This document shows positions 1,676-14,539 of a DNA stretch of 14,539 bases, piece after piece. The stretch is from an uncultured Bacteroidales bacterium (lineage in GTDB: Bacteria > Bacteroidota > Bacteroidia > Bacteroidales > UBA932), in assembly GCA_934693135.1 (NCBI GenBank), contig CAKUVA010000035.1, positions 1-14,539 of the forward strand. The letters run 5' to 3'. Position numbers and translations under genes: made by a program. Within the stretch, counting starts at the first letter, position 1, and the number at the start of each line of letters is the position of its first letter. The notes beneath the pieces were generated by a model. It searched no databases and was not told the origin of the DNA. It saw nothing but the letters and a program-made list of their open reading frames with translations.

Positions 1676-1992
1676 CTTCCGTCTTTGATAAAGTGATACA
1701 CAATTATTTGCCCACTCTTCATATATGTCGTTACTGTATATGCCTTAAGTTCGGCAAGTTCATCATCAGAGACAACTGCCCAACGCATTGTCCCCCAGGC
1801 GTAGGCAAATGACGTATCTCTTATAGGAACTTCTGATTCTCTCTTCCGGTTAAACTCCAGTTCCATGCTGGCCCAGTCTACATTTCTCACTTTATTTATC
1901 CTTACGATAGTTTCGATTGCGATGCTGAAGACAAGCAAAAACAGAATGGTAGCCACAAGTGTCTCCAGTAATGTTGAACCCGATATTTTCAT
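1672..1992 (-). CDS. Small minor pseudopilin with G|STLLE signal
   Basis: The preferred start, ATG at 1992, gives a 106-aa protein beginning MKISG, then STLLETLVATILFLLVFSIA. This is a prepilin signal with cleavage after Gly5, Glu at mature position 5 and a hydrophobic helix to about residue 30. It creates an ATGA overlap with the stop of the GspC-like gene. An upstream in-frame start at 2025 would put 11 extra residues before the leader and is unlikely. The rest (about 75 residues) holds a small mixed head with a beta-like end. It is likely a GspI/PilV-like minor pseudopilin; the exact class is inferred. Confidence 0.8.
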   Translation of the reverse strand: MKISGSTLLETLVATILFLLVFSIAIETIVRINKVRNVDWASMELEFNRKRESEVPIRDTSFAYAWGTMRWAVVSDDELAELKAYTVTTYMKSGQIIVYHFIKDGR

Positions 1993-2432
1993 TGTGCACC
2001 AAGTATTTGCCGTTGACCATTCCACCAGACAGAAATCGAGTCCGGAGCAATTTCATGTATTTTTATGCCGACGATAGACTCTCCTTCTGTCAATGTAGAT
2101 ATTTCCCCTTGGAACTCAACAATCGCTCTTTTAACACCATCCTTGTCCCGAAGCGACCCCTTATATTTGACTGAAGGCATCGGCTTAGATATTCTCTCAA
2201 CCTTATGAGCAACTGCTTCAGTTCCCCCAACGCTTCGTTCTTCGTAAAGGAACGGATCTTTGTAATTGAGATTCAGAGTAGCTGGCGCGGACATGTCTGG
2301 AGGGCTCTCTGTTCGCTCTGAATATGACACGTTGTGTTTGGGGATCAGCCACTTTAATATCCGGAAAGCGACCAAGCCCCAGATAATCAGAACTATTGCC
2401 AGCAGAACTATGGTATTGATCTTTTCACCCAT
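1989..2432 (-). CDS. GspC/PilP-like inner-membrane link to the secretin
   Basis: A single-pass protein of about 147 aa: an N-terminal membrane helix (INTIVLLAIVLIIWGLVAF), a Pro/Ser-containing linker, the segment LNLNYKDPFL, then a compact beta domain in the last 65 residues (YKGSLRDKDG through VEFQGEISTLTEGESIVG to ISVWWNGQRQ). The DPF motif and the 'Gly-x-Leu ... Gly-Glu-x-(Val/Ile)-Gly-x-x-Ile' pattern are those of the homology region of GspC and of PilP, which bind secretin N-domains in the periplasm. Start choice: ATG at 2432 leaves a 4-base gap after the previous stop. A GTG at 2459, preceded very closely by AGGAG, would add nine residues and overlap the previous gene. There is no PDZ or coiled-coil end. 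Confidence 0.75.
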   Translation of the reverse strand: MGEKINTIVLLAIVLIIWGLVAFRILKWLIPKHNVSYSERTESPPDMSAPATLNLNYKDPFLYEERSVGGTEAVAHKVERISKPMPSVKYKGSLRDKDGVKRAIVEFQGEISTLTEGESIVGIKIHEIAPDSISVWWNGQRQILGAQ

Positions 2433-2436
2433 GACA

Positions 2437-3660
2437 TTAATAAACTTTTCGTATTTCACGTCTCCTATATGGACCTTTCAACAATTTAGGGTAAATGGCA
2501 TCCGCATCGTAACTGAGCTGCACATTCTGCAGTACGCCAGGATATTTACGCCCGTTAACATGCGTAAAACAATCTCCCAGAAAGGCACTTCCATTTATAA
2601 CGCCGGCAAGCATGGCAGCACCGTCAATATACACAAGACCTGACATTTGGCTGCCCCTATGTTGTATCAAACTTGGATACAGCAACTCTTTATCCTCCCA
2701 CCCGTCATTTAACACAACGACATAGCCGTCTATTTTCGAATTTTTGCCTATTTCGATATATGGATGCTCATGTCCAGAGACAAGTATTCCTGATGGAGCG
2801 GATAGATGAACCCCTGTCCCTATCAGTAAAGAGTCCGCACAGAAGAACTGGCCGCAGCCATGAAAACCATCCTCTATTGTTATTGTTCGGGCAAAGAGCA
2901 GTATTCCGTCCAAATGCGAGTTGGCACTGATCGTCAACTTGTCTCCGTATAAAATCTGGTTGCCACCCAAATGATAAACCTTGTCGGAGTTTTTTCCGTA
3001 TAAAAAAGCTGTCGGGGCTGAGTGGTCCACGTATTCAGCTTGACTGTTCCTGAAATACCACGCCTGTGAGATGCTATCACGATAACATCGGATACTCTTT
3101 AGATAAGACGAATCAATGACCGGGAGCTGTGCCGAAGAGATTCGCAAGGCGGATTCCTCAACATAGTCACCAGAGAAGTTTTCCCCAGAAAGTCCGGTGT
3201 AATTGATACCGCTTGGAGGTATATAAGCACGTCCATCTATCCTCGTATTCCCTGACAACGATAGCGGACGGGCTCTGTCACGAACCCAGATTGCCGCGTC
3301 CAAATCCGTCTCTCGGGCTTTCCCGCAAACCACGGTGTGAGATAATGGCAAATAATCCGATTTTGCTGTCAGCACCTCATATAGTCCCCAATCCTTTCTG
3401 GTAAGGACAACATGTGATTCGGACATATCAAAGAGTTTGACACGCACCATATCACCCTGCCCATAAAACATGTTGCTGTCGATACAATAACGAGCGACAG
3501 CGGAGTGAAGATCCAATATCCGCTGTTTCCGTGTATGGTATGCTTGATACTCTTGACGCTCCAAATCGGCCAGAGACAAGGCGAACAGGACAAGCAAAGA
3601 GACGAGGACGGAAACTACCATGACCACTGGAAGGGAAAAAGCCCAGATGCGTTTATTCAT
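2437..3660 (-). CDS. GspK/PilX-like pseudopilin with a beta-helix-like domain
   Basis: A 407-aa exported protein starting MNKRIWA, then FSLPVVMVVSVLVSLLVLFA. The leader and A|F cleavage site match those of GspG in this operon, but mature position 5 is Val instead of Glu, the hallmark of GspK, the pseudopilin at the tip. After the helix come about 110 residues of mixed character. From about residue 135 on there are repeated short beta patterns with Gly/Asp turns (GNTRIDGRAYI, NSHLDGILLFARTITIEDGF, IEIGKNSKIDGYVVV, GAAMLAGVINGSAFLGD), resembling left-handed or bactofilin-like beta-helix rungs. No GspK alpha-helical insert is seen. The 5' end overlaps the GspM-like gene by 8 bases. The tip role is inferred from the signal, size and operon position. 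Confidence 0.7.
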   Translation of the reverse strand: MNKRIWAFSLPVVMVVSVLVSLLVLFALSLADLERQEYQAYHTRKQRILDLHSAVARYCIDSNMFYGQGDMVRVKLFDMSESHVVLTRKDWGLYEVLTAKSDYLPLSHTVVCGKARETDLDAAIWVRDRARPLSLSGNTRIDGRAYIPPSGINYTGLSGENFSGDYVEESALRISSAQLPVIDSSYLKSIRCYRDSISQAWYFRNSQAEYVDHSAPTAFLYGKNSDKVYHLGGNQILYGDKLTISANSHLDGILLFARTITIEDGFHGCGQFFCADSLLIGTGVHLSAPSGILVSGHEHPYIEIGKNSKIDGYVVVLNDGWEDKELLYPSLIQHRGSQMSGLVYIDGAAMLAGVINGSAFLGDCFTHVNGRKYPGVLQNVQLSYDADAIYPKLLKGPYRRREIRKVY

Positions 3661-4123
3661 TGAGTGTCAATTGAATTAAATCAATATCGAGAGAAACCAG
3701 CGGTTCTTGTCCGGATTTATGGGAGAAACGTAACATCGCGTATCCGATGTCTGGCTCTCTCTCCAATGAATTGACGAGTTTAAGCAGTGGGATAAATGGC
3801 CCTTTCATAAGCAAATGACATCGACATAAAGATACCGGCCCCTCGACTCTGTCACATGAAGGTGCAAAAGAAACAATCTCGCACCCATCTGAAGTTGCTG
3901 CATTCAAGTGTTCTTTGAACAGGTAGTCTCCTGTCAACAGGTTTTCCTGATTGATAGCAAACCTGTCATCTTCAAGAAGCAGAGCAGGTGAGCTTCCCTT
4001 TTTCAACTCCTTAAGTTCTCTATAATGCGAAACAGTATTCCGTATTGTTGTCAACCAAAGAAATAATGGCAACAAAACAAGTAGAGAAAGTAGTTTCACC
4101 CATATAAAACTGTTCTTCTTCAT
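3653..4123 (-). CDS. GspM/PilO-like assembly protein
   Basis: A 156-aa bitopic protein: a short basic start (MKKNSFIWVK), a membrane helix at about 9-27 (LLSLLVLLPLFLWLTTI), a helical stretch to about residue 45 that could be a short coiled coil, and a periplasmic domain ending in a PilO/GspM-like pattern (LMKGPFIPLLKLVNSLEREP, then two beta-like strands). In the family this protein pairs with GspL/PilN in the inner-membrane platform. Its start overlaps the stop of the GspL-like gene in ATGA form, supporting translational coupling of the pair. Sequence similarity is weak; the assignment rests on topology, the domain pattern and gene order. Confidence 0.72.
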   Translation of the reverse strand: MKKNSFIWVKLLSLLVLLPLFLWLTTIRNTVSHYRELKELKKGSSPALLLEDDRFAINQENLLTGDYLFKEHLNAATSDGCEIVSFAPSCDRVEGPVSLCRCHLLMKGPFIPLLKLVNSLEREPDIGYAMLRFSHKSGQEPLVSLDIDLIQLTLNE

Positions 4124-4950
4124 TGTCTTATCAGAAAATCAAAATAATAGTTAGAGTCATTGATTCTGGCCTCCAGTGATTTGATTTCAACGGTGTTAGA
4201 TATTCCCTTCAGCAACTCTGAGTAGAGCAATATCTTTGACACGTCCGATGCTGACCCTGACACCTTAATTGCATGTTCCTTTGTGCGTTCCATCAAGTAA
4301 AGCCGTACTCCATCCGGCATTAATGAGGCGATTCTATCAAACGCAACAGATGATTTGGGGAGAATGAGCCCTTGGTAGTCGGCTATCATTTTCTCCTTTT
4401 GCGTGACAATCTCATGGTGGTTTCTATGTTGAGCCTCACTCTGTCGTTTAAGCTGTTGTTCAACATTCAACTCCTCTCCTATATGAGATGATACAATGAA
4501 ATTGGCCACAAGCACAAGCAACCAGAACAATAGAACAGGAAGCCTGATTTTACGATACAAACTTCTCATCAGGAATTCACACAATGGCTTGGATGAGACC
4601 ATTTTCTTCACATCGGAAAATTCTTCTCTCAATCGCCGAGCCACACCACGGGATTCTTCCTCTGTTGCCCCTATGACTATCCCTGAAATATAACAATCGA
4701 CAAGCTGCGTCTTTACCGGTTCCAAGGCGGCAGAAGGAATGTAACAAACATGGTCATTGTATTCAGTCCACATCAGTGAGCCGCTCATTTTAAGTCTGGA
4801 CATAAAAGGATCGTTATCTCCAATTTGCCGAGATGTTACTTCAGAGCCACTTACAGAAAGAACGACAATACCGTTAACCGCCTTGACCTCGGATACTTTG
4901 TCGGGATTGTCAAGACGAATTTCAATCACTTCGGGGCGCATCCCACTCAT
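4120..4950 (-). CDS. GspL/PilN-like assembly protein
   Basis: The start is placed at the ATG at 4950, which forms an ATGA overlap with the secretin stop and gives 276 aa. A longer open frame reaches 5052 but lies inside the secretin gene. The layout is a cytoplasmic region of about 136 residues, a membrane helix (LPVLLFWLLVLVANFIVSS, about 137-155), a charged coiled-coil-like stretch (about 160-195) and a periplasmic ferredoxin-like domain at the end containing LMPDGVRLYLMER and ISGSASD-type features (here VSGSASDVSKILLYSELLKG). This last block is typical of PilN. The cytoplasmic part is shorter than a full GspL/PilM actin-like domain, and no separate PilM is visible, so contact with GspE must be made by this shortened domain or by GspF alone (inference). 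Confidence 0.78.
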   Translation of the reverse strand: MSGMRPEVIEIRLDNPDKVSEVKAVNGIVVLSVSGSEVTSRQIGDNDPFMSRLKMSGSLMWTEYNDHVCYIPSAALEPVKTQLVDCYISGIVIGATEEESRGVARRLREEFSDVKKMVSSKPLCEFLMRSLYRKIRLPVLLFWLLVLVANFIVSSHIGEELNVEQQLKRQSEAQHRNHHEIVTQKEKMIADYQGLILPKSSVAFDRIASLMPDGVRLYLMERTKEHAIKVSGSASDVSKILLYSELLKGISNTVEIKSLEARINDSNYYFDFLIRQ

Positions 4951-6569
4951 AACATAATTGTAGGTTTTATGAATACATTCAGTTTCTGCACTTCCCGTGT
5001 TTTCGTTACATTTCCGCAGAATAGACGCAGGACAGGCACACGAGCAATCCACGGAAGCCCTGAACTTGAATCCTCGGTGAGATTCTTCTCAATTCCACCA
5101 AGCAGAATCATCTCCCCATCTTTTACTTTGACGATAGAATTGAAACTTCGTCTTGTCATTCCCGGAGGAGCTGTAAGATCTCCTGTGTCCCTTTCTGTGA
5201 ATTCATCCTGTCCGAGTTCAATACGGATAGTGATGGTGCTGTCGGCGCTTACAATCGGAGTCATGTCCAAAACGAACGATGCCTCAACGTTCTTCCATAT
5301 ATATGATTCTGACTGAAGAGGGTTTTGTGTACCGATAATGTTTACTTGGCTTTCACGATAATACTTTACCTCTCCACTTTTCAGGACAGCCTTATGACCA
5401 TTCAGAGTAGAGAGTTTCGGAGTCGAACGAAGAGTTATCTCCCCGTCCTCTTCCAACAGTTTTAGATCTGCGTAGAAGTTTGGGCCGACATTACCGAGGT
5501 TGACAAGTCCCAGACCGTTAAACGCATTTAAAAGCTGGTTGATTTTTCCAGCCCCAAGAGATACGTCAATTCCAGGCGAGAGTGTCCCGTATGAATTGGA
5601 TGTCGCCTCGCCATCTTTGCCCAATTTAACTCCTGTGCTGCGGCTTTTCCGATTCGTAGCGTCAACAATCATAACATCAATGGATATTAGAGGAACACTT
5701 TTGTCTATGCTCTCCAGAAAAACTTCTACCGCTTCCACATCAGTTTGATTCCCGCTGAGCACCAGACTGTTGAGATCCGAGAACAACTTGATTTCAATAT
5801 CTTTTTTCAGAGCGGAAGGGATTATCTCTACTACATCATCTATCGTGCGGAACCGCATAGGAAACTGGCGGACACAGAACATCGGCTGTGGCGCAAGTGT
5901 GTTTTCGTCGGGGAAGAATGACTGCCCGCCTCGCCCCTTTTCTCCAATCATCCAGTAGCCTGATTCCGATTGCTCACATCGCAGACCATTGGCGGCGGAT
6001 ATATTGTCCATCATTTGAGAAAGAGACATGCCTGTACCAAAACCCGAAACTGTCCGCGTCGCAAGAGAAGGTTCATATACAATATTACACCCCGTTTCGA
6101 CAATCAATCTTCTGACCAGAACATCCATAGGACAATTGAAAAAATCCATTTTATATAGGCCGGAAGAATCACGAGCAACGGTCAATGGGGGTATAGGCGT
6201 AAGTTCATGCAAGGGGCTTATTGTTATAATCCCGGCTCTGTCCACAGTCAAATCTAGATTCCCTTCCCTGCAACATAATAAAAGGAACTCTTTTAAGGGC
6301 ACCTGCTCTAAATTGCAGGTTATCGACTGCTTATGCTTATCCAGCTCTAGATTGATATTGAGCCTGTTACCAATGGCGACCGTTTTCAACAAATCAGCAA
6401 TTTGGAAATTAGTCACGGAAACATCAATCGGTTCTTGAAGGGCGACATGGCGAACAGAGAGAGAATCCAATGCCATTTGCAGTGACCTGATTCGTTCTGA
6501 TTCCTGTGCCAGCATAGGCAAGCCGAAAAACGTCACTGAAACAAAAGATATAATAATTTGTCTTATCAT
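4947..6569 (-). CDS. gspD: GspD/PilQ-family outer-membrane secretin
   Basis: A 540-aa secretin. The signal peptide covers about 1-21 (MIRQIIISFVSVTFFGLPMLA, cut before QES). Residues about 45-110 form an STN-like N0 domain (VTNFQIADLLKTVAIG, then LEQVPLKEFLLLCC), followed by a second similar domain (about 140-205) and an N-domain of the 'secretin_N' type near 230-290 (VVEIIPSALK, LNSLVLSGNQTDVEAVEVFL). The C-terminal secretin barrel domain runs from about 295 to the end, with LRSTPKLSTLNGHKAVLKSG, KDGEMILLGGIEKN and the closing VPVLRLFCGNVTKTREVQKL plus VFIKP. It forms the outer-membrane exit pore. The gap to gspE is 3 bases. No pilotin gene and no S-domain are evident. Confidence 0.93.
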   Translation of the reverse strand: MIRQIIISFVSVTFFGLPMLAQESERIRSLQMALDSLSVRHVALQEPIDVSVTNFQIADLLKTVAIGNRLNINLELDKHKQSITCNLEQVPLKEFLLLCCREGNLDLTVDRAGIITISPLHELTPIPPLTVARDSSGLYKMDFFNCPMDVLVRRLIVETGCNIVYEPSLATRTVSGFGTGMSLSQMMDNISAANGLRCEQSESGYWMIGEKGRGGQSFFPDENTLAPQPMFCVRQFPMRFRTIDDVVEIIPSALKKDIEIKLFSDLNSLVLSGNQTDVEAVEVFLESIDKSVPLISIDVMIVDATNRKSRSTGVKLGKDGEATSNSYGTLSPGIDVSLGAGKINQLLNAFNGLGLVNLGNVGPNFYADLKLLEEDGEITLRSTPKLSTLNGHKAVLKSGEVKYYRESQVNIIGTQNPLQSESYIWKNVEASFVLDMTPIVSADSTITIRIELGQDEFTERDTGDLTAPPGMTRRSFNSIVKVKDGEMILLGGIEKNLTEDSSSGLPWIARVPVLRLFCGNVTKTREVQKLNVFIKPTIML

Positions 6570-6572
6570 TGC

Positions 6573-7976
6573 TCAATTATTCAAAAAAGGAAGAATGTCG
6601 TCCTGCGAAATAAGGCCTTCTATTAGGAGTGAAATGGCGGAGTCTCGTAAAGTCTTGATTTTGTGTCGTGCTAATAATTCACTGATATTCGCTCTTTTTT
6701 CCTTAACAGCCTCCGACAATTCACCTTTTATGGGTATGACTTCATATACGGCTTTTCGCCCTTTGTACCCAGTGTAATAACAGTTTTCGCACCCTTTTGC
6801 GGCATAGACTTTTTGTGAAACAGGGGCCTCTATCTGTCCAGCTATGCTGCTTTCGATGGCTATTTCTTGTTTGCAATGCGGGCAAAGGACACGGACAAGT
6901 CGTTGCGCGACACAGGCAACCAACGTCTCAGAAAGTAGATATGGATGAATGCCCATATCTACTAACCTTGTAATACATCCCCAGGCGCTGTTGGTATGAA
7001 GAGTTGAAAGAAGAAGATGTCCGGTTAGAGAACTGCGCACGGCCATTTCTGCTGTTACCTCATCACGGATTTCGCCAAGCATGATGATATCGGGATCCTG
7101 ACGGAGAAATGTACGAAGCGCCATGGCGAAATCCAGACCGATATCTTCTTTAAGCTGCACCTGATTCACCCCGGCAAGTGTGTATTCAACGGGGTCCTCA
7201 ATTGTGAGAATGTTATTGTCTTCCTTATTCAGCAATTCAAGTGTCGCATATAATGTCGTACTTTTACCCGAACCGGTTGGCCCGCTTATCAGGATCATCC
7301 CGTGCGGATGAGATACCGCATTTATGTAATCCTGATACTGGTGCTTATCCAAACCAAGTTCCGAAAGAGACAGATGCCGGGCATTCATGGTCAAAAGCCT
7401 GAGGACTATTTTCTCGCCATATATCGTTGGAAGAGTGGAAGCCCGGATATCAAAACGCACACCGTTCTTCTCATGGATGATACGTCCATCTTGTGGAAGC
7501 CGCTTTTCTGATATATCTAGGTTGGACATGATTTTTATACGGTTAACCAATGCAGTGTAGGAAGATTTCCGTATTACATACCGTTCCAGCAGTTTTCCGT
7601 CAACCCTGAAACGTACGCGGCAACTCTGCTCTTCAGGCTCCAGATGAATGTCGCTTGCGCGCATCCGGTATGCCTCATCTATCAGGACGGCCACATCTTC
7701 TATAACTTCTGTGGCAAGACCACGTGAGCCTTGACGATAATGCTCGCCTAAAAGTTTTGTAAAAATTTCTCTTACAACAGGTTGTACTATCACCGCCTTG
7801 CCGAACAACAATGATATTTCCTTTATGGTGTCAGCATACTCCCGGCCCTCTATCCCTAAACAACACAGCGTGTTCCCATCCAGATGATAAGGAAGCAACT
7901 GATAGTATTTGGACTCTTCAGAAGTCAACACCTGCAAGGCTTCAGTTTCTACCGTATATGTGTTCGCGTTTATCAT
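6573..7976 (-). CDS. gspE: GspE/PilB-type secretion ATPase
   Basis: Hexameric cytoplasmic ATPase that drives pseudopilus assembly. With the ATG at 7976 the protein has 467 aa; a GTG at 7985 would add three residues. It shows a short N-terminal GspE-N-like region, then the N2 domain (ASDIHLEPEEQ, VRFRVDGKLLE), Walker A GPTGSGKS at about 232-239, the Asp box (ILTIEDPVEY), Walker B (PDIIMLGEIRD, about 296-305), a His box (LSTLHTNSA) and the four-cysteine zinc module CPHC at 365-368 and CENC at 396-399 with YTGYKGRKAVYEV. All catalytic motifs are intact. The zinc module and GRKAVYEV favour an assembly ATPase (GspE/PilB) over a retraction ATPase (PilT), and no pilT-like gene is present in the window. 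Confidence 0.95.
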   Translation of the reverse strand: MINANTYTVETEALQVLTSEESKYYQLLPYHLDGNTLCCLGIEGREYADTIKEISLLFGKAVIVQPVVREIFTKLLGEHYRQGSRGLATEVIEDVAVLIDEAYRMRASDIHLEPEEQSCRVRFRVDGKLLERYVIRKSSYTALVNRIKIMSNLDISEKRLPQDGRIIHEKNGVRFDIRASTLPTIYGEKIVLRLLTMNARHLSLSELGLDKHQYQDYINAVSHPHGMILISGPTGSGKSTTLYATLELLNKEDNNILTIEDPVEYTLAGVNQVQLKEDIGLDFAMALRTFLRQDPDIIMLGEIRDEVTAEMAVRSSLTGHLLLSTLHTNSAWGCITRLVDMGIHPYLLSETLVACVAQRLVRVLCPHCKQEIAIESSIAGQIEAPVSQKVYAAKGCENCYYTGYKGRKAVYEVIPIKGELSEAVKEKRANISELLARHKIKTLRDSAISLLIEGLISQDDILPFLNN

Positions 7977-7987
7977 TAAATTCACAA

Positions 7988-8449
7988 CTATGCAGTTAAT
8001 AATCTATAGCCCATAACGACAGAATAGGCTACCACCATGACCGAGATCATCGGAACTCCGGTTTTGTGAGGTTGAGTTATTCGGGTCAGAGGCCAAATCA
8101 GAATGCCCATGAGGGAAGATCCCACAATATATTTGATATAATCTGTTAACCCAAAAGCGGAGGATACCGCTAGCAAGAAAATGAGATCTCCCACACCCAA
8201 TAACTCGGCCAACGGTCTGTGTCTAACCTTTGCATACACCAAAAGGGTGATACCGATAATAAGCAATAACAACAAATTACCGATAATCCTGAGAACCACA
8301 CATCTCCAACCATAGAGAAGCCCAAGGAATATAGTGTTGAGGATTCCGAAAGCCAGAAGCCACCACAAGGACACCGTCCGACTCTTGATATCGGAAATCA
8401 TCAAGATTACAAGCGGAAATAAAAGCGACATTGACAACCACCTGACCAT
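7988..8449 (-). CDS. Short A24-family prepilin peptidase
   Basis: A 153-aa polytopic membrane protein with about five or six hydrophobic helices. It carries the two aspartates expected of type IV prepilin peptidases: Asp20 in SDIKSRTV (compare the usual 'D-x-(K/R)' site after helix 1) and Asp88 in GVGDLIFL (the GxGD motif). It lacks the N-terminal methyltransferase domain and four-cysteine site of standard PilD/GspO, so it is of the minimal CpaA/TadV-like size. It should cleave the leaders of the four pseudopilins encoded beside it. Its start overlaps the gspG stop (TGATG), indicating coupled translation. Confidence 0.88.
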   Translation of the reverse strand: MVRWLSMSLLFPLVILMISDIKSRTVSLWWLLAFGILNTIFLGLLYGWRCVVLRIIGNLLLLLIIGITLLVYAKVRHRPLAELLGVGDLIFLLAVSSAFGLTDYIKYIVGSSLMGILIWPLTRITQPHKTGVPMISVMVVAYSVVMGYRLLTA

Positions 8450-8847
8450 CAGTCCTTGACACTCTCCTTCAGTTTTTTGTCTTGATCTATCTCCCAGACA
8501 TTGAAAATACCATCCTTGTCAAAGTCAACGACAGATACAGCCTGCGCCTTGAATCCCTTCTCATCGGCAGAGATGACCTCAATCCTATAGTTTGCATTCC
8601 CGCCCTCTGTCACCAGCAAAGCTTGCTCAAAGCCCAATTCCATGAGATCATCTGAGTACCGGGAATAGGTATAGAAGTGACTCTGCTCCAGAGAATGCAG
8701 GAAAGTGAGCTGCTGCTGCGCCTCCGTAGCCTTGGCCCTTGAAATCAGGGGCATAAGGTTCGGGAGAGCTACAAGCACCAGGATGCCGATAATAACAAGA
8801 ACCACAAGGAGTTCCGGAAGGGAGAACGCGCGAATGTTATTTTTCAT
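8449..8847 (-). CDS. gspG: GspG-type major pseudopilin
   Basis: A 132-aa pseudopilin: leader MKNNIRA, cleavage expected between Ala7 and Phe8, then FSLPELLVVLVIIGILVLVA with Glu at mature position 5. The head contains HSLEQSHFYTYSRYSDDLMELGF and ends with the acidic loop DFDKDGIFNVWEID (about 108-121), which resembles the calcium-binding region of GspG/pilin heads. Ala at -1 is allowed but less common than Gly. The start overlaps the upstream small secreted-protein gene by 11 bases. The N-terminal part is duplicated in broken form at about 11364-11548. Confidence 0.9.
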   Translation of the reverse strand: MKNNIRAFSLPELLVVLVIIGILVLVALPNLMPLISRAKATEAQQQLTFLHSLEQSHFYTYSRYSDDLMELGFEQALLVTEGGNANYRIEVISADEKGFKAQAVSVVDFDKDGIFNVWEIDQDKKLKESVKD

Positions 8848-9457
8848 TAATTGGCTCTTTAAAAAATTCTATATTGTCATTCATGAAATCTTCAGCATCA
8901 ACGGGATACAATTCATCCCGACTTTCATCGTATTGCAATATATATAGCTGATTATCATATATCACCCAGAACCTTCTATCAGATGATTCCCCTAATTGTA
9001 TTGTAAAAACATAATCTATATGATTATTCTGCAGATACTTAAGTAATCTCTTACTCCAGACATTGCCAGCCCATATTTCAGCCTCCTCCATCTTGTTCAC
9101 TCTATTGCGAAATCTATGATTACCGGAAAGCCACCCATACGGAAAAACGAAATACTTCCCTTTTTCTATATCGAAAGCGAAATCATTATCTAAAATAGGG
9201 TTACATATATAAGACCAAAGTTTTTGCGGTCGTTCTTGCAACGGCAGCTGATAGAACGATAAATAGTTGTCTGTATAAGAGAAATTCGCAACCGATGGGA
9301 CATAAGTCAGAGAAGTGTCCAAGCAGGCTTTTTTCAAGTGTTCCTTATATGCTGACTTGTAGCCCTCTATAAAATCATGTACGTCTTGCGCCCAGATCTG
9401 AGAGGATTGGCCCAAGAGTACGAGCACAAAGACGAAAAGTGACAATATCTGTTTCAT
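8837..9457 (-). CDS. Small secreted protein of unknown function, family copy A
   Basis: I do not recognise this family. The 206-aa product has a clear signal peptide (MKQILSLFVFVLVLLGQSSQIWA, cut before QDVHDF), with no lipobox. The mature protein starts DFIEGYKSAYKEHLKK and is rich in aromatic and charged residues, with KLWSYICNPIL mid-way and a C-terminal IDYVFTIQ ... RFWVIYDNQLYILQYD strand-like region. The start and end patterns recur in the gene at 10427-11083 (FIENYKSYMRAHYRK, KKWSY, PDGVFSV ... WFFIIGENIALV). The first 108 codons or so are nearly repeated at 12656-12986. The gene overlaps gspG by 11 bases, so it is probably cotranscribed with the secretion machine. Possible jobs are a substrate, an immunity protein or a periplasmic accessory factor. 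Confidence 0.8.
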   Translation of the reverse strand: MKQILSLFVFVLVLLGQSSQIWAQDVHDFIEGYKSAYKEHLKKACLDTSLTYVPSVANFSYTDNYLSFYQLPLQERPQKLWSYICNPILDNDFAFDIEKGKYFVFPYGWLSGNHRFRNRVNKMEEAEIWAGNVWSKRLLKYLQNNHIDYVFTIQLGESSDRRFWVIYDNQLYILQYDESRDELYPVDAEDFMNDNIEFFKEPINEK

Positions 9458-9502
9458 TTTAATACCTAAAGACAGTCAGATTAGTAATGCTTGAAATTGA
9501 TC
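9126..9502 (-). repeat. Direct duplication, intact copy (partner at 12656-13033)
   Basis: This segment covers the upstream spacer, the start and roughly the first half of secreted-protein gene A. It aligns by eye almost without gaps (constant offset of 3529 bases) to 12656-13020, with one small indel near 9495. Homology ends on one side at the stop region of the gene at 9501 and on the other at the IS66 junction in the partner. A second homologous stretch, the first part of gspG, is found at 8645-8830 here and 11364-11524 in the partner, so the original duplication was probably one larger unit. Confidence 0.85.
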
Positions 9503-10100
9503 AGAAACATTCGTTATTAGCCTCTAATAATTCCGACAATCTACTGTAATCCTTCAAGAGGCCTTTTTCTTTTTTGTAATAGTCATAAATATATACAATG
9601 TCATTCTTTACATAGAAAAAACTTCCATAAAACTTCTTGCATATTAAAATAACGTCCGGATTTTGTTTTTTTATGTAGTTGAATGCTTTTTCTTCCTTTT
9701 TCGCCATGCCTATCATCAGGGCCGAGAAGCCGTCATCTATGAATACAATTTCTCCATTATATGTTGCTACTCTGAGTTTTACAGTCTGTTTTTTATCGCT
9801 GTAACATAAGTCCAAAGGAAAATCATTATGCACAAGACTTAGTTCGACCAAGGAATCCTTGCACAATACTTCCACTTGGAATACGACAGTCACATCGTAA
9901 TTTTCCTTTGCATAATTGACTTGAGAAATCCATTTTTCCTTGTTAGCATTTATTAGGTTGTTGAACTTCTCATTAAGAACTTTTTCAATTCTGACTGTAT
10001 CCCATACAGCTATCTGTTCCATCAACCTGTTATAAACCACTTGAGAGAATATTGGCGTGCAACATAATGCGCAGACCAAAAAAGTAATCATTCTTTTCAT
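9501..10100 (-). CDS. Small secreted protein of unknown function, family copy C
   Basis: The preferred start is the ATG at 10100 (199 aa; a TTG at 10106 would add two residues). The signal peptide is MKRMITFLVCALCCTPIFS, cut before QVVYNR. No known domain is recognised. The C-terminal third (IKKQNPDVILICKKFYGSFF, then YVKNDIVYIYDYY) follows the same pattern as the genes at 8837 and 10427: a Pro-Asp-x-(Ile/Val) turn, a strand, then (F/W)(F/Y)-(V/I) and an Asn-x-(I/L) strand. The middle part KQTVKLRVATYNG ... GFSALMIGM is shared with the short gene just upstream. There is a 2-base gap to that gene and 43 bases to the next. Role unknown. Confidence 0.75.
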   Translation of the reverse strand: MKRMITFLVCALCCTPIFSQVVYNRLMEQIAVWDTVRIEKVLNEKFNNLINANKEKWISQVNYAKENYDVTVVFQVEVLCKDSLVELSLVHNDFPLDLCYSDKKQTVKLRVATYNGEIVFIDDGFSALMIGMAKKEEKAFNYIKKQNPDVILICKKFYGSFFYVKNDIVYIYDYYKKEKGLLKDYSRLSELLEANNECF

Positions 10101-10102
10101 AT

Positions 10103-10420
10103 TCAATACCTTAATCCACCAATAGAAAGAGCCCAGAAGCTCTTGCTTACAAGTTTGTCCAGACTGTAACTTCCTACTCTGAGCTTAATGACAGTCTTCG
10201 TCGAGTAATAACGTATAGATCTGACAACATCCATATGCCTCATATTACTGCTGTACTCGAAGAGTAGAGAAACAAGCCTGTTGCCAGAATGCAGGCTGCT
10301 TGCAAAGTTTTGATCGGCCAGCCGCAATAAGTCCATGTCTTCTGCGGAGAAAAACCCTTTCGCGATATCCTCTAGGCGCATAGGGTGTTCTAAAACACCT
10401 GTTCCTTCCTTAAATTTCAT
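10103..10420 (-). CDS. Short protein related to the middle of family copy C
   Basis: A 105-aa product from the ATG at 10420; a TTG at 10426 is also open. There is no signal peptide. The last 30 residues, KTVIKLRVGSYSLDKLVSKS then FWALSIGGLRY, match KQTVKLRVATYNGEIVFIDD then GFSALMIGM in the next gene, where the homology stops. The product therefore looks like a truncated or rearranged family member that has lost its exported N-terminus and its C-terminal third. The N-terminal 70 residues (with LRLADQNFASSLHSGNRLVS) match nothing I know. It sits tightly between two family genes. It could be a gene remnant that stays open by chance. Confidence 0.5.
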   Translation of the reverse strand: MKFKEGTGVLEHPMRLEDIAKGFFSAEDMDLLRLADQNFASSLHSGNRLVSLLFEYSSNMRHMDVVRSIRYYSTKTVIKLRVGSYSLDKLVSKSFWALSIGGLRY

Positions 10421-10426
10421 ACGCAA

Positions 10427-11083
10427 CTATTTGATTTCCTGTTTAGCAGTGATAGGCATGAAAGTAGGATCGGAGAAATAAAGTTTTACGTAATCCAACG
10501 CATTCTCATGATAGAGCAATTTGAATTTGCCCAACTCAGAACAATAAACATTTTTAACAAGGGCAATATTTTCGCCTATAATAAAGAACCACCCGGGAAT
10601 GCCGAAGACCGAGAAAACACCATCTGGCTTATATTTTGTGACCATTTCCATCAGTTCTATTTTTTCATCATTAGTAGCGTCAGAGTATTTCACCTTCCCA
10701 ATCACCGCATCGATATACATTTTTTTACATTGACCATTTGCGTACAGTATGAATTCATCCGGTTTCCGCTTTTTATAGTAAAAAGTATCCCACGATGCAT
10801 ATTTTTCATTGCCGGAGGGTGAGACAAGGCGTTCTTCCCCATTTATTTCAACAAAATTATAGCTCCACTTTTTGTTAATATCTTCTCTGATGGTTAATGT
10901 AGGTATAAAAATCAAAGAATCGGACGCTCTGATAGAACCATCGGAGTGTCTTTCCGCAAGTCTATGGAACTTGCGATAATGCGCCCTCATATACGATTTG
11001 TAATTCTCTATGAAGGATTCCGTTTCTGAAGGCATGCAAACGGACATGCACAAAAAAACATACAACAACAAATGAGCATTCAT
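10427..11083 (-). CDS. Small secreted protein of unknown function, family copy B
   Basis: The start is placed at the ATG at 11083 (218 aa), giving a signal-like N-terminus MNAHLLLYVFLCMSVCMP. The start lies 2 bases after the stop of the orphan tail ORF (11086), which suggests coupling. The mature part begins ESFIENYKSYMRAHYRKFHR and carries DSLIFIPTL, KKWSYNF and a C-terminal YKPDGVFSVFGIPGWFFIIG segment followed by ENIALVKNVY. Each of these has a counterpart in the same order in the gene at 8837-9457, so the two are paralogues with very divergent middle parts. Function unknown; the tight link to an upstream variable tail is typical of toxin-immunity pairs, which is inference. Confidence 0.75.
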   Translation of the reverse strand: MNAHLLLYVFLCMSVCMPSETESFIENYKSYMRAHYRKFHRLAERHSDGSIRASDSLIFIPTLTIREDINKKWSYNFVEINGEERLVSPSGNEKYASWDTFYYKKRKPDEFILYANGQCKKMYIDAVIGKVKYSDATNDEKIELMEMVTKYKPDGVFSVFGIPGWFFIIGENIALVKNVYCSELGKFKLLYHENALDYVKLYFSDPTFMPITAKQEIK

Positions 11084-11085
11084 AA

Positions 11086-11364
11086 TTATTTGTATCCAAT
11101 TATTCCAACACAATCGAGACGCGAATAATATCTATAGCCGCCAATTAAAGGGTCATGGACGTAGGCGGAAAACAAGTGCAGTATGTTCCCGATGCCTCCA
11201 CCGAACATATTCAGTTTGTATCCGATGGTAATGCCCCTCACGTTGACGGCATGATTATTTGTAGTGGACAACACCTCCATATTGTTTGCCAAACTGCCCC
11301 CGAGACTTAGCCACTCACTGCCAGATGGATTAGACATACTCCCTGAAGTCTCACATACCTTTAG
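11086..11364 (-). pseudogene. Orphan C-terminal coding tail joined to a gspG fragment
   Basis: A frame of about 92 codons ending at 11086. It has no start of its own; an ATG further upstream (11484) lies in the shifted frame of the gspG fragment and gives an artificial 132-aa chimera. The tail contains SGSMSNPSGSEWLSLGGSLA, a Gly-rich GYKLNMFGGGIGNILHLFSA and the end IGGYRYYSRLDCVGIIGYK. I do not recognise it. Its position, directly followed after 2 bases by a secreted small protein gene, is like a displaced polymorphic-toxin tail with an immunity gene. It could equally be the end of an unrelated deleted gene. Confidence 0.5.
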
Positions 11365-11548
11365 GTATAGAAGTAACTCTGCTCCAGAGAATGCAGAAAA
11401 GTGAGCTGCTGCTGCGCCTTCGTAGCCTTGGCCCTTGAAATCAGGGGCATAAGGTTCGGCAGAGCCACAGCACAAGGATTCCAATAATCACAAGAACTAC
11501 AAGGAGTTCGGGAAGCGAGAACGCATTCTTATCTATAGTCCGTTTCAT
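11364..11548 (-). pseudogene. Broken N-terminal copy of gspG
   Basis: It starts with its own ATG at 11548 (MKRTIDKNA, then FSLPELLVVLVIIGILVL), so a second prepilin leader and helix are present, nearly identical to gspG after the cleavage site but with a different leader. A one-base deletion near 11477, compared with gspG around 8785, breaks the frame. The homology continues through the counterpart of LISRAKATEAQQQLTFLHSL to the codons for FYT and stops at about 11364, where an in-frame TAA appears. The start overlaps the 3' end of the 164-aa gene by 20 bases, echoing the overlap of gspG with its own upstream neighbour. Confidence 0.88.
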
Positions 11549-12023
11549 CATTTAAATAAGAGGTTTCTTTTCTATTGTTTATTAACCAAGTTTTTAGAAC
11601 TATGACATCCAATATTGTATTTGGCTGAAGACTTATTGCCACTACTCCGTCTTGTGCAATAATACCTTTTTTTTCAGCTTGACTAGATGAATACCTCATT
11701 ATTCGTTTAATACGATATGGTCCCAATCGATTACAGACAGTTATTCCACACAATTTTCGAGTATGAGTGACTGTATTCCTAATTATGTCAATATCATTCT
11801 CATCAGATATTATTTCATCATTGATAATAAGTATTGGATAATGAATAGGAATATTATTCTTTATAGCGAACTCAATTGTTGCATCATTGCTCAAACAATA
11901 CTCTACATATACATCGACATTTTTCACGACTATTGAGTCTTTATTTTTAGGTTCATTTTGTGCGTTAATATGAGGGAAAAACAAAAACATGATGACTAAT
12001 AATAACACCAATTTCTTTATCAT
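11529..12023 (-). CDS. Exported protein with faint TonB-plug-like pattern
   Basis: A 164-aa product from the ATG at 12023, with signal peptide MIKKLVLLLVIMFLFFPHINA cut before QNEPK. An open frame continues far upstream to 12986 but runs backwards through the IS66 remnant and is not one gene. The middle holds YPILIINDEIISDENDIDII and, about 50 residues later, EKKGIIAQDGVVAISL. Together these recall the plug-domain pattern 'P-(I/L)-x-(V/I)-(I/N)-(D/N)-G/D-x-x-I ... Y-G-x-x-(A/N)-G-V-(I/V)-x-(I/V)' of SusC/TonB-dependent receptors, but the protein is far too small to be a receptor. It begins just outside the proposed IS66 end and overlaps the broken gspG copy. Function unknown. Confidence 0.7.
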   Translation of the reverse strand: MIKKLVLLLVIMFLFFPHINAQNEPKNKDSIVVKNVDVYVEYCLSNDATIEFAIKNNIPIHYPILIINDEIISDENDIDIIRNTVTHTRKLCGITVCNRLGPYRIKRIMRYSSSQAEKKGIIAQDGVVAISLQPNTILDVIVLKTWLINNRKETSYLNDETDYR

Positions 12024-12289: not shown

Positions 12290-12297
12290 TAAATTTG
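12290..12297 (+). promoter_or_regulatory. Candidate -7 box for the IS66 transposase
   Basis: TAAATTTG fits exactly the Bacteroidetes sigma-ABfr -7 consensus TAnnTTTG and lies 33 bases before the GTG of the transposase fragment. A clear -33 TTTG is not present at the expected distance, so the assignment is moderate. Confidence 0.35.
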
Positions 12298-12329: not shown

Positions 12330-12655
12330 GTGGAAAAGGACTTCAACACAGGATTGAGAAGGAGCGTCGAGGCGGACCGGGTGAGACTGACCCGCAGGCG
12401 CAAGCAGCTCCTTCGGGAGATGGGGCTCGCCGAGGATCTTGACTCCACGGAGCTCGCGGAGAAGCTCCACGAACAGGCCCGTGTGGTTGATGTCCTGAAC
12501 CGCAATCTTGTCCGCAAGGATGAGGAGATCGAGAAACTCAAAGTCAGAATCGCGGAACTTGAGCACGGCGCCAAACCCATTGTGAAGACCAGCGCCAACA
12601 GCGGCGTTCCGCCCTCCAAGAACCCGATAGGCGTCCCTCATACGCAGTCTCAACG
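12330..12655 (+). pseudogene. IS66-type transposase (TnpC), N-terminal fragment
   Basis: From a GTG at 12330 the frame encodes a basic helical start (VEKDFNTGLRRSVEADRVRL), a coiled-coil with LHEQARVVDVLNRNL and KLKVRIAELEHG, and then SANSGVPPSKNPIG, the signature that precedes the zinc-finger and DDE domains in IS66 transposases (usual form N-S-(S/G)-x-P-P-S-(K/S)). It ends near TQSQRKPS, where the typical continuation to a Gly-rich GGQ motif and the catalytic domain should come. Instead the DNA passes into antisense of gene A'. With about 110 of some 500 residues left, it cannot be active. Confidence 0.85.
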
Positions 12656-12986
12656 GAAGCCATCCGTACGGAAAAAAGAAATACCTTCCTTTTTCCACAT
12701 CGAAAGCGAAATCATTAGCTAAAATAGGGTTACATATATAAGACCAAAGCTTTTGTGGGCGTTCTTGCACCGGCAACTGATAAAACGATAAATGGTTGTT
12801 TACATAATTGAGATTCACAACCGACGGGACATACGTCAAAGAGGTGTCCAATCGGGCTTTTTTCAAGTGTTTCTTATATGCTGACTTGTAACCCTCTATA
12901 AAATCATGTATGTCTTGCGCCCTGATCTGAGAGGATTGGCACAAGAGTACGAGAACAAAGACGAAAAGTGACAATATCTGTTTCAT
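12656..12986 (-). pseudogene. Truncated second copy of secreted-protein gene A
   Basis: The first 110 codons or so repeat gene A (8837-9457) closely: the same signal peptide start MKQILSLFVFVLVLL, DFIEGYKSAYKKHLKKA and KLWSYICNPILANDFAFDVE. Homology ends after the codons for FPYGW at the IS66 junction. The frame stays open through the reversed IS66 segment, producing a false 485-aa reading that also swallows the next gene. The C-terminal half, which holds the conserved end pattern of the family, is gone, so a functional product is unlikely, although a secreted N-terminal fragment could still be made. Confidence 0.88.
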
Positions 12987-13060: not shown

Positions 13061-13092
13061 CAAATTTTAAGCGAGTAATGATGTAAGTTCAA
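13061..13092 (-). promoter_or_regulatory. Candidate Bacteroidetes promoter before gene A'
   Basis: Reading the minus strand, TTG at 13092-13090 is followed after 20 bases by TAAAATTTG (13069-13061). This is close to the -33 TTTG / -7 TAnnTTTG promoter of Bacteroidetes, but with one extra base inside the -7 box. It would start a transcript about 70 bases ahead of the ATG at 12986. The intact copy A has no equivalent, since its homologous spacer ends before this point. Confidence 0.3.
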
Positions 13093-13523
13093 TACACTAC
13101 AACCTGTATCGCCAACTCCTTCTTCGTCTCACTATAGACTATTAAGCTGTAATTTCTCGGATCACTCTTGTCTATATCTATAAGGTAGAGGCCCGAATCC
13201 AAGCCCCGTACATAACCGATTCCCTTTCCAGACATTATCTTTTTATGCTGTTTTAACATGGGCATTTCAATTGCTCCGGAATCTGACATCTGACTTGAAA
13301 TGTCGTTCAATTCACTATCTTGCGCCGTGGGAAAAGATAACAGGATGAACAATTCTCCATCCCCGTTAGGATACCACTTCTCTGTTTTTTCCACAACCTT
13401 ATATTCTATCTGTTGCAAATTGATGCCGAAACCTGAACAAATATGATCGATCCGATCTTGACAGGAAGATAAGCATAATACAAGACTTAGCATAGAAACA
13501 ACTCGTGATAAAGTAATCCCCAT
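13089..13523 (-). CDS. Small lipoprotein, candidate immunity protein for the Rhs tail
   Basis: A 144-aa product with a lipoprotein signal: MGITLSRVVSMLSLVLCLSS, then the lipobox Cys at position 21 (LSSC), followed by Gln and Asp. It should be anchored in an envelope membrane facing the periplasm or cell surface. The mature part has strand-like segments (GELFILLSFP, GIGYVRGLDSGLYLIDID, YSLIVYSETKKELAIQVVVY) and no family I recognise. It begins 7 bases after the stop of the Rhs gene. In polymorphic toxin loci the gene right after the variable tail usually encodes the immunity protein, and a periplasmic lipoprotein fits a toxin acting in the envelope. That role is inferred from position. Confidence 0.75.
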   Translation of the reverse strand: MGITLSRVVSMLSLVLCLSSCQDRIDHICSGFGINLQQIEYKVVEKTEKWYPNGDGELFILLSFPTAQDSELNDISSQMSDSGAIEMPMLKQHKKIMSGKGIGYVRGLDSGLYLIDIDKSDPRNYSLIVYSETKKELAIQVVVY

Positions 13524-13530
13524 ATTTCAT

Positions 13531-14539
13531 TTATTTAACAAAGATATTTTTCCTATAGTATATGTCGAACGATGAACCATTAACGATACCGCCATAACTC
13601 CTCGTGATCAACTCGGCAGGTATACTTCTGACTCCCCAGGACTTTGCATCGAAGTCGTATCTGTCCCTAAAACCGAGTAACTTTGTATACATGCCATTCG
13701 AACAAAACTTCACAGATGCCGTGCCAAAAGAGTATTTCAAATCAAAACTAGCATCGTAGAAATCAATGCTTGCAGTATAGTATCCGTCTTCTCCTAATAT
13801 AGCATTAGCATAATCTATCTTTCCTTTAGAGACCAAATAATTGAATTCTCTGCTTGATATAATAAAATCCTCACCATTTCCTTTTGAGTAATGATGTCGT
13901 AATCGATTAAAAAACTTATATTCTTCGGTATAATGCTGTAAGTGATTAAATCCGGAAGTAATTAGGCCAATGCAAGCTCCTCGCCAGAAATCTCCCCCAT
14001 TTATTTCTGATGATATGCCACTCGTAACAGAACTAAATATCAGCATTGCTGCTTCGCCAAGAGTTTGTTCCAAACCTAAAATGTAATAACCACTCGCTGC
14101 CCATGAACCAAGCATTCCTGAAGTAAACCCGCTCCAAAAGTTGCCCCCTTGCAACGATGACACTCCCCCTTGAGTAAAACCATGAGTAACACCTCTGATT
14201 AGTTCTGTCCCAAATGACCCCGCGAAATTACCGAAAGTACTAAAAGCCTCTCCAATGCCAAATGTCACAGCCCCAGATAACGCTCCAAAGCCAACAGATT
14301 TACCAAAATCAGACCAATTCCAATTATTAAATCCTCCAGCACTTAGTACGACTCCAGCTGTGTACGATGCACCTCCTATTACTGCACCCCAGCAAGCAGC
14401 ATCTAATATGGAGCCCAATGGACCCAGAAAAAGAGAAAAGAAGAACTCTCCGGTCTCGTCGGTATATTTCAGCGGATTGTTCAGCGCATAGGAATACCTG
14501 TTGAAGTTCTGGGAGAAGTCCGGCGCCTGCACGTAGGGG
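13531..14539 (-). CDS. C-terminal part of an Rhs-family protein with variable tail
   Basis: Partial: the gene enters from beyond the right edge, and the GTG at 14532 is an internal Val codon. The visible 336 residues start PYVQAPDFSQNFNRYSYALN then NPLKYTDETGEFF, the conserved end of the Bacteroidetes Rhs-repeat-associated core. A long Gly-rich hydrophobic connector follows (about 30-200), with repeats of the GG(N/D)FW(S/R)G type (QGGNFWSGFTSG, NGGDFWRGACIGLITSGFNH). The last 130 residues or so are the polymorphic tail, ending with DRYDFDAKSWGVRSIPAELI and FDIYYRKNIFVK. I recognise no known toxin motif in it. Rhs shells release such tails as contact-dependent toxins; export is by T6SS or other routes. 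Confidence 0.88.
   Translation of the reverse strand, partial: PYVQAPDFSQNFNRYSYALNNPLKYTDETGEFFFSLFLGPLGSILDAACWGAVIGGASYTAGVVLSAGGFNNWNWSDFGKSVGFGALSGAVTFGIGEAFSTFGNFAGSFGTELIRGVTHGFTQGGVSSLQGGNFWSGFTSGMLGSWAASGYYILGLEQTLGEAAMLIFSSVTSGISSEINGGDFWRGACIGLITSGFNHLQHYTEEYKFFNRLRHHYSKGNGEDFIISSREFNYLVSKGKIDYANAILGEDGYYTASIDFYDASFDLKYSFGTASVKFCSNGMYTKLLGFRDRYDFDAKSWGVRSIPAELITRSYGGIVNGSSFDIYYRKNIFVK

What the first reader, a model, noticed from the sequence alone, without database searches (positions are those of the whole stretch)
8837..11083. Undescribed family of secreted paralogues feeding into the secretion operon
The genes at 8837, 9501 and 10427 share an order of motifs: a signal peptide, FIE-x-YKS in two of them, a K-x-WSY segment in the same two, and in all three a C-terminal turn and strand pair (PD-x-(V/I) or IDYVF, then FF/FW-(V/I), then an Asn-x-(I/L) strand). 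The gene at 10103 is a partial member. The last of them overlaps gspG. A diverging, tandemly expanded family in front of a secretion machine suggests substrates, immunity proteins or exchangeable adaptors.
Basis: partly seen in the sequence, partly recalled or inferred. Interest (0 to 1): 0.75.

Follow-up and report, generated by a model that had tools for sequence, protein, structure and literature searches.

The report
Toxin-immunity cassettes beside a secretion machine
The odd secreted proteins look like antidote genes from a swapping array of bacterial toxin cassettes, wedged between a giant Rhs toxin and a type II-like secretion machine that repeatedly neighbours Rhs toxins across the Bacteroidota, as if that machine exports them.

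Summary
The genes at 8837 and 10427 are true distant homologues. The gene at 9501 and the fragment at 10103 form a second related pair, with only a weak C-terminal resemblance to 10427.

These families match nothing useful in Pfam, NCBIfam or PADLOC and are absent from 152 fetched loci, so they are variable cargo, not machine parts. Best reading: exported immunity proteins, partly orphaned, of Rhs C-terminal toxins.

The neighbourhood gave the larger result. This gsp (type II-like) lineage is physically linked to Rhs across Bacteroidota: 25 of 34 gspE loci in a phylum sample and 10 of 19 in a presumed Bacteroidales sample lie within 20 kb of an Rhs core (about 1.5 expected in all), against 1 of 19 control ATPase loci. 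Most complete linked Rhs genes (9 of 13) look Sec-exported. T2SS-dependent activity of an Rhs bacteriocin is in print for Xanthomonas, and one Flavobacterium paper noted RHS-like proteins in a T2SS island. My searches found no account of a phylum-wide linkage. Immunity and export are inferred, not shown.

The parts
13531..14539 (-). C-terminal part of an Rhs protein: end of the Rhs core, then variable C-terminal domain (gene runs off the window)
   Evidence: TIGR03696 positions 54-75 of 76, E 2.9e-4, under the cut-off because truncated; ORF open at the window edge
13089..13523 (-). lipoprotein-like gene 7 bp after the Rhs stop: presumed cognate immunity gene
   Evidence: position; lipobox LSSC by eye; no Pfam or NCBIfam match
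12636..12986 (-). truncated second copy of the 8837 gene (residues 1-117)
   Evidence: 82% protein identity; DNA 12657-13033 is 90% identical to 9128-9502
12330..12640 (+). fragment resembling an IS66-type transposase N-terminus interrupting that copy
   Evidence: ORF; weak DUF6444 match, E 0.03; the IS66 assignment is recalled, not tested
11529..12023 (-). another gene with a signal peptide (presumed immunity), overlapping the start of the gspG duplicate
   Evidence: the protein P0014 fuses an 8837-type N-terminus to this gene's body
11362..11551 (-). broken duplicate of the 5' part of gspG (1-bp indel, truncated)
   Evidence: 92% over 164 bp to 8666-8829; start read
11086..11361 (-). orphan C-terminal tail (about 91 codons), presumed Rhs-CT remnant
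   Evidence: open frame ending 2 bp before the ATG of 10427; no family match, so the Rhs-CT identity is inferred
10427..11083 (-). presumed exported protein, homologue of 8837 (presumed immunity)
   Evidence: E 3.4e-6; 0/400 shuffles; 5 database relatives
10103..10426 (-). remnant related to 9501, no ATG at its head and no signal peptide
   Evidence: blastp E 0.004 over 44 aa; 0/400 shuffles
9501..10100 (-). protein with a signal peptide, of a second family (46 database hits)
   Evidence: weak C-terminal likeness to 10427
8837..9457 (-). protein with a signal peptide (15 database hits), end overlaps gspG start by 11 bp
8449..8847 (-). gspG-like major pseudopilin
   Evidence: N_methyl E 6.6e-7; 45-76% identity to GspG in 43 of 43 gsp loci
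378..8449 (-). rest of the gsp (type II-like) operon: prepilin peptidase-like 7988-8449, GspE 6573-7985, GspD 4947-6569, inner-membrane and pseudopilin-like genes 1415-5052, GspF 378-1433
   Evidence: Pfam T2SSE E 1.9e-127, Secretin 1.5e-30, T2SSF 5.8e-49, Peptidase_A24 2e-4; the genes at 1672-5052 have no Pfam match and 1415-1675 was not scanned, so their roles are by position

Best explanation
8837 and 10427 (one family), 9501 with the remnant 10103 (a second family), 11529 and 13089 are exported immunity proteins of Rhs C-terminal toxins, several of them now orphans, in a cassette array between an Rhs gene and gspG. New cassettes enter by homologous recombination that uses the start of gspG (and conserved stretches of older cassettes) as the docking site, leaving truncated copies behind. 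The Rhs protein is made with a Sec signal peptide, folds in the periplasm around its toxin, and leaves through the adjacent gsp (type II-like) machine. This is why its antidotes are also sent to the periplasm and kept beside the machine. SHOWN: gene order, the duplications, the 8837-10427 homology, the absence of these families from the other fetched loci, and the statistical linkage of this gsp lineage with Rhs. INFERRED: immunity function, periplasmic location, export of Rhs by this machine, and the route of cassette gain. The N-terminus of the window's own Rhs lies outside the window, so its signal peptide is inferred from other loci.
For: (1) Position: 13089 starts 7 bp after the Rhs stop, and 10427 starts 2 bp after the orphan tail. 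(2) Cassette behaviour: second copies of 8837 and of the gspG start, and chimeric relatives P0011 and P0014. (3) Not machine parts: profiles of all the families find nothing (best E 0.13) in 152 fetched loci, 2.18 Mb, overlaps and 80 mostly non-Bacteroidota loci included, whereas GspG is found in 43 of 43 gsp loci. (4) Linkage: Rhs core within 20 kb of gspE at 25/34 loci (two subsets, expected 0.94, P 1e-13 and 4e-21) and 10/19 (expected 0.51, P 3e-12); at 10 kb 6/13, 7/21 and 7/19 against 0.23, 0.30 and 0.28 expected; control PilB-like loci 1/19. (5) Same-strand layouts like the window's: L130 Rhs - lipoprotein - gspG; L132 and L138 gspE - Rhs - lipoprotein - gspD; cassette rows before gspG in L126 and L148, and before the pseudopilin-gspF-gspG genes in L139. 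(6) Of 13 Rhs genes of over 900 aa that hold a core and lie whole in the stretches, 9 have a Sec-type start by a crude rule. (7) Precedent: activity of the Xanthomonas Rhs bacteriocin Bcn-A is lost in a T2SS (xpsD) mutant (PMC7259588, passages read).
Against: No toxin-immunity pair was tested. The orphan tail matches no family, so its Rhs-CT nature is inferred. Only 5 of those 13 Rhs genes are followed at once by a small protein with an export signal, and 4 of 13 show no export signal by the rule (L098, L131, L137, L139; L098's start looks like one by eye). In the 13 closest phylum gsp loci the nearest Rhs is on the same strand in only 3 of 10 linked cases. Four gsp loci of the nearest family (L142, L143, L149, L152) show no Rhs motif near gspG. 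112 of 363 genomes without this gsp type also carry Rhs, so other export routes exist. The null model is uniform placement and ignores shared ancestry; the 20-kb limit and the E cut that defines the gsp class were set after seeing the data, though the cut falls in a natural gap (8e-94 to 4e-84).
Confidence: 0.6

Rival explanations
1. The secreted proteins are themselves small effectors exported by the gsp machine, the substrates suggested by the first reader.
For: They have signal peptides and lie in the operon; T2SS substrates are Sec-exported (established knowledge).
Against: They lie where immunity genes lie, downstream of Rhs or a presumed toxin tail; no match to a toxin or enzyme family (only a weak PHROG of unknown function for 9501, E 0.005); a large Rhs substrate candidate is linked to the same machine across the phylum.
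Confidence: 0.15
2. They are exchangeable adaptors or chaperones loading Rhs onto the gsp machine.
For: Tight coupling to gspG (11-bp overlap) and co-occurrence with Rhs.
Against: Absent from all 152 fetched loci, including gsp-Rhs loci with conserved machine genes; at least two families without detectable full-length kinship occupy the same slot; fragments are tolerated.
Confidence: 0.08
3. The gsp-Rhs linkage is only a shared insertion hotspot: Rhs arrays accumulate beside the gsp operon without being exported by it.
For: In 12 of 35 linked loci the nearest Rhs is on the opposite strand and remnants litter the array; Rhs also occurs in genomes without this gsp type; some gsp loci have no Rhs motif nearby.
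Against: The linkage recurs in different architectures (before gspG, between gspE and gspD, after the inner-membrane genes, divergent), which one hotspot would not predict; 9 of 13 linked Rhs have Sec-type starts; the Xanthomonas T2SS-Rhs dependence (PMC7259588).
Confidence: 0.25

Closest known systems
Rhs polymorphic toxins with RhsI immunity genes and orphan CT/immunity modules
   Same: Rhs core end, variable C-terminus, small gene directly downstream, displaced orphan cassettes
   Different: No T6SS or PAAR domain among the window's 20 ORFs scanned with Pfam; gsp operon instead; immunity candidates with export signals, of undescribed families
Xanthomonas perforans Bcn-A (RHS bacteriocin; activity lost in a T2SS xpsD mutant; PMC7259588, passages read)
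   Same: Rhs toxin with its own immunity gene whose activity needs a type II system
   Different: There the dependence was shown by mutating xpsD in a heterologous X. euvesicatoria host; I did not check whether bcnA is linked to xps. Here the toxin array is linked to, and in some loci inside, the gsp cluster
Flavobacterium psychrophilum CC-ST10 T2S island (PMC5808330, passages read)
   Same: T2S genes with two neighbouring proteins bearing ABC-toxin (RHS) domains, in Bacteroidota
   Different: One island read by its authors as possibly serving virulence; no immunity cassettes and no general linkage in the passages read
Bacteroidetes T2SS clusters of Cytophaga hutchinsonii and four others (PMC5553014, passages read)
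   Same: gsp gene set, with variable inner-membrane and pseudopilin genes
   Different: Studied for cellulose use; zero occurrences of 'Rhs' in the main text
rAID orphan immunity arrays of gut Bacteroidales (PMC12247911, abstract read)
   Same: Arrays of divergent orphan immunity genes
   Different: rAID arrays are recombinase-associated and counter T6SS effectors; here the array ends at gspG and no recombinase was recognised in the window
TANFOR polymorphic toxins of Bacteroidetes (PMC7073777, passages read)
   Same: Polymorphic toxins of the same phylum, most with a periplasmic signal peptide
   Different: Proposed there to leave by T9SS; different N-terminal domain

Membership tests
Rhs polymorphic toxin system | Rhs-associated core followed by a variable C-terminal domain | tested here: inconclusive
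   Only the last 22 core positions lie in the window (TIGR03696 E 2.9e-4, 21.3 bits against a cut-off of 32.5); the gene runs off the window
Rhs polymorphic toxin system | Small gene immediately downstream on the same strand, as an immunity gene would be | tested here: met
   13089 starts 7 bp after the Rhs stop; protection itself not tested
Rhs polymorphic toxin system | Toxin activity neutralised by the immunity protein | not testable with these tools
   needs an experiment
Type II secretion system (gsp) | Secretin, GspE ATPase, GspF, pseudopilin and prepilin peptidase together | tested here: met
   Pfam; the peptidase match (E 2e-4) is below its curated cut-off
Type II secretion system (gsp) | GspG passes the curated GspG model | tested here: not met
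   TIGR01710 30.4 bits against a cut-off of 88.85; it is a divergent pseudopilin, so 'type II-like' is the safer name
Type II secretion system (gsp) | Exports folded periplasmic proteins | not testable with these tools
   needs an experiment
rAID orphan immunity cluster | Associated recombinase | tested here: not met
   No recombinase family among the 20 ORFs scanned with Pfam; the window covers only 14.5 kb
Described immunity families (Imm, SUKH and others in Pfam) | Match of 8837, 9501 or 10427 to a curated model | tested here: not met
   Pfam gave no match for 8837 or 10427 and only HMG_box (E 0.085, under its cut-off) for 9501; NCBIfam and PADLOC none; PHROGs one family of unknown function for 9501 (E 0.005)
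8837/10427 family including 9501 | Full-length homology of 9501 to the other two | tested here: not met
   no link to 8837; only 44 C-terminal columns align weakly with 10427
8837/10427 family including 9501 | Common fold | tested here: inconclusive
   8837 model pLDDT 77, pTM 0.75; 9501 model pLDDT 39, unusable; 10427 not modelled

The most novel reading that the evidence does not exclude
A widespread lineage of Bacteroidota gsp machines is a dedicated exporter for Sec-targeted Rhs toxins, which are often split into two giant proteins (a TcB-like partner and a toxin-bearing half). Competing strains swap exported toxin-antidote cassettes at docking sites inside the secretion operon, here the start of gspG.
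Probability: 0.5. Interest if true: 0.82.

Novelty: new variant of a known kind. Interest (0 to 1): 0.62.

Why it matters
How Bacteroidota export Rhs toxins other than by T6SS is, as far as I know, an open question, and the substrates of their type II-like systems are little known. A strong phylum-wide linkage makes both testable by one secretin or ATPase deletion in a harmless Pedobacter. It would also explain why the antidotes carry signal peptides and gives a rule for finding new toxin-immunity pairs: read the genes between Rhs and gspG.

Tried and rejected

Loci carrying relatives of the families: five scans of viral contigs found none (one search was for the Rhs tail). Plasmids: no megablast match for 8837-11083. 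No relative of the families lies in any fetched locus. The closest genomes found have a GspE up to 60% identical, so the species of the window is not identified. A smaller Mfa2 draw (61 genomes) had found none.

Rfam: nothing at the gathering threshold. Promoter/terminator scan of 7900-13600: promoter matches near chance (19 against 15.5); terminator-like 7 against 3.9. Neither is used as evidence.

Pedobacter layout: I first read L001 as a single Rhs inside the operon. It is a broken array (N-terminal fragment, toxin/immunity modules, Rhs end before gspG).

Counter-example kept: one PilB-like locus (G176) also lies 13 kb from Rhs.

Full report
WHAT IS THERE. The window holds, on its minus strand, a gsp (type II-like) operon: GspF 378-1433, pseudopilin and inner-membrane-like genes 1415-5052 (named by position), secretin GspD 4947-6569, ATPase GspE 6573-7985, prepilin peptidase-like 7988-8449 and a GspG-like pseudopilin 8449-8847. 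Upstream of gspG lies a packed row of small genes and remnants, mostly on the same strand, and at the far end the C-terminus of an Rhs gene that runs off the window. The order from Rhs to gspG is: Rhs tail (13531-14539), lipoprotein-like 13089-13523, truncated copy of the 8837 gene 12636-12986 with an IS66-like fragment on the other strand, gene 11529-12023, broken gspG start 11362-11551, orphan tail 11086-11361, 10427-11083, remnant 10103-10426, 9501-10100, 8837-9457, gspG.

THE CLAIMED FAMILY. With presumed signal peptides removed, 8837 and 10427 are more alike than any of 400 shuffles, and so are 9501 and 10103; 9501-10427 is marginal (5/400); 8837-9501 is at chance (138/400); 15 pairs were tested. 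hhalign of the 8837 family (14 sequences) against the 10427 family (6) gives E 3.4e-6 over 162 columns. The 9501 family (window plus 15 of 46 hits) aligns with the 10427 family only over 44 C-terminal columns (E 9e-4, probability 23) and with the 8837 family not at all. The families are narrow: 15, 5 and 46 database hits at E <= 0.01 for 8837, 10427 and 9501, none with a Pfam annotation except P0065, which looks like a chimera with a phosphatase-like domain.

CASSETTES. DNA 12657-13033 is 90% identical to 9128-9502, and 11362-11524 is 92% identical to 8666-8829. The second gspG start has its own ATG, overlaps the end of gene 11529, and is broken by a one-base indel. Thus two rows, each ending in a gene that overlaps a gspG start, stand in tandem. 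Database relatives show the same traffic: P0014 joins an 8837-type N-terminus to the body of gene 11529, and P0011 joins a gspG-like leader to an 8837 body. This suggests that cassettes come and go at this place in other strains too. The recombination route is inferred.

NOT MACHINE PARTS. Profiles of the combined 8837/10427 alignment (12 sequences) and of the 8837, 10427 and 9501 families, run against six-frame segments of 50 residues or more from all 152 fetched loci (2.18 Mb, overlapping stretches and the 80 loci included), find nothing (best E 0.13). GspG, by contrast, is found by plain tblastn in 43 of 43 gsp loci (13; 19; 11), at 45-76% identity. In one search, stretches L135, L137 and L138 show gspE without a GspG match inside the stretch.

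THE LARGER PATTERN. In an even draw of 395 genomes of the phylum of Pedobacter frigoris, 32 genomes (34 loci) encode a GspE with E <= 8.4e-94 to the window's; the next match is at 4e-84. All 32 hold an Rhs core match at E <= 0.001; in one, G220, the matches are under the curated cut-off. In the whole draw 144 of 395 do (Fisher P 8e-16). At 25 of 34 loci an Rhs core lies within 20 kb of gspE (10 of 13 closest, 15 of 21 next), where uniform placement predicts 0.94; P is 1e-13 and 4e-21 for the two subsets; at 10 kb the counts are 6 of 13 and 7 of 21 (expected 0.23 and 0.30). The nine misses are G290 (140 kb), G171 (33 kb), G007 (29 kb) and six with no Rhs on that contig (G143, G220, G164, G012, G017, G002). 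In a second draw, 344 genomes of the order of G348 (presumed Bacteroidales), 20 genomes match at E <= 1e-90; 19 are full-length with 49-57% identity, and the partial one (G549) was dropped. 10 of these 19 are linked (expected 0.51, P 3e-12). Of the nine others, G722 and G671 show no Rhs at all, G714 is a miss on a 58-kb contig with 17.5 kb upstream of gspE, and the other six have short contigs or contig ends within about 9 kb upstream. The nearest Rhs is on the strand of gspE in 23 of 35 linked loci (3/10, 12/15 and 8/10 in the three sets). Control: PilB-like ATPase loci in 15 genomes that also have Rhs are linked at 1 of 19 loci (G176; Fisher P 1.4e-6 against 25/34). These were the genomes with both features and a PilB-like position printed; further PilB-like loci whose positions were not printed, and those in gsp genomes, were left out. 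Of 28 PilB-like-only genomes, two have Rhs. Caveats: the null ignores shared ancestry, genome sizes are rounded, and the 20-kb limit and the E cut were chosen after seeing the data.

ARCHITECTURES. The linked loci are not copies of one insertion. Rhs - lipoprotein - gspG (L130) is the window's layout. Rhs - lipoprotein between gspE and gspD is seen in L132 and L138. Toxin-tail/immunity-like rows precede gspG in L126 and L148, and precede the pseudopilin, gspF and gspG genes in L139. Divergent Rhs is seen in L098 and L122. Rhs follows the inner-membrane genes in L131. In the family nearest to the window (12 of 56 genomes with gspE, 11 new loci fetched), a simple motif scan sees Rhs in 3 of the 11 (L144, L145, L148). 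It sees none in L142, L143, L149 and L152. The remaining four (L146, L147, L150, L151) give no motif hit either, but reach at most about 6.6 kb upstream of gspG. Of 13 Rhs ORFs of over 900 aa that contain a core and lie whole in the stretches (L098, L114, L122, L124, L130, L131, L132, L134-L139), 9 have a Sec-type start by a crude rule (not L098, L131, L137, L139), and 5 (L122, L124, L130, L132, L138) are followed at once by a small protein with an export signal.

SPLIT RHS. One gene or two upstream of many of these Rhs genes lies a second giant protein. Thirteen giant ORFs near Rhs or gsp were compared by blastp with each other and with five Rhs genes. Twelve of the thirteen had at least one match among the others at E <= 1e-3; L103_13149 had none. 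Several end in YD-type sequence. Of six scanned with Pfam, one has a weak TcdB middle/N-terminal match (E 0.01), one an RHS_repeat match, and four nothing. The three Rhs proteins scanned carry DUF6443 and RHS repeats. This suggests a two-part Rhs shell like TcB/TcC; it is an inference.

MECHANISM. Best-supported model: Rhs is moved by Sec to the periplasm, folds around its toxin, and is passed out by the gsp machine; because it stays for a while in the periplasm, antidotes against envelope-acting toxins are exported too. The array collects antidotes against other strains' toxins. Shown: layout, homology, duplications, linkage. Inferred: immunity, location, export.

LITERATURE. Full-text searches (open-access library only, and only the top 15, 15 and 10 of 41, 33 and 26 papers were listed) found no description of a phylum-wide gsp-Rhs linkage. 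Closest: Bcn-A, an RHS bacteriocin of Xanthomonas perforans, whose activity disappears in an xpsD (T2SS) mutant (PMC7259588, passages read). The T2S island of F. psychrophilum CC-ST10 contains two proteins with ABC-toxin domains (PMC5808330, passages read). T2SS clusters in five Bacteroidetes are described without mention of Rhs in the main text (PMC5553014, passages read). TANFOR toxins are proposed to use T9SS (PMC7073777, passages read). Orphan immunity arrays in gut Bacteroidales are known as rAID (PMC12247911, abstract read).

VERDICT. The small genes are most likely Rhs immunity cassettes in a recombining array: new families of a known kind. The neighbourhood points to a new variant: Rhs toxin arrays married to a type II-like exporter in much of the Bacteroidota.

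Noticed in passing
L130:4635-9056, L134:14349-19478, L114:306-3983, L124:14812-18018, L144:10467-13790, L131:5912-9772: A second giant protein with a Sec-type start (1068-1709 aa), mutually related and with YD-type ends in several, sits one or two genes upstream of gsp-linked Rhs genes; possibly the other half of a split Rhs shell.
   Followed up: partly
window 12330-12640 (+): Fragment resembling an IS66-type transposase N-terminus inside the truncated copy of the 8837 gene.
   Followed up: no
window 352-382 and 13077-13108: 32-bp inverted match (91%) between the 3' side of gspF and the 3' end of the lipoprotein-like gene 13089, 12.7 kb apart; unexplained.
   Followed up: no
window 90-371: Degenerate GGYAPK-type repeats downstream of gspF, including a 39-bp repeat at 144-182/206-243.
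   Followed up: no
G176:C4:631471-632610 and 645598-650604: A PilB-like (not gsp-type) ATPase gene also lies 13 kb from an Rhs array; the only such case among 19 control loci.
   Followed up: partly
P0065: A relative of 9501 fused to a phosphatase-like (HAD) domain, probably another recombination or assembly chimera.
   Followed up: no
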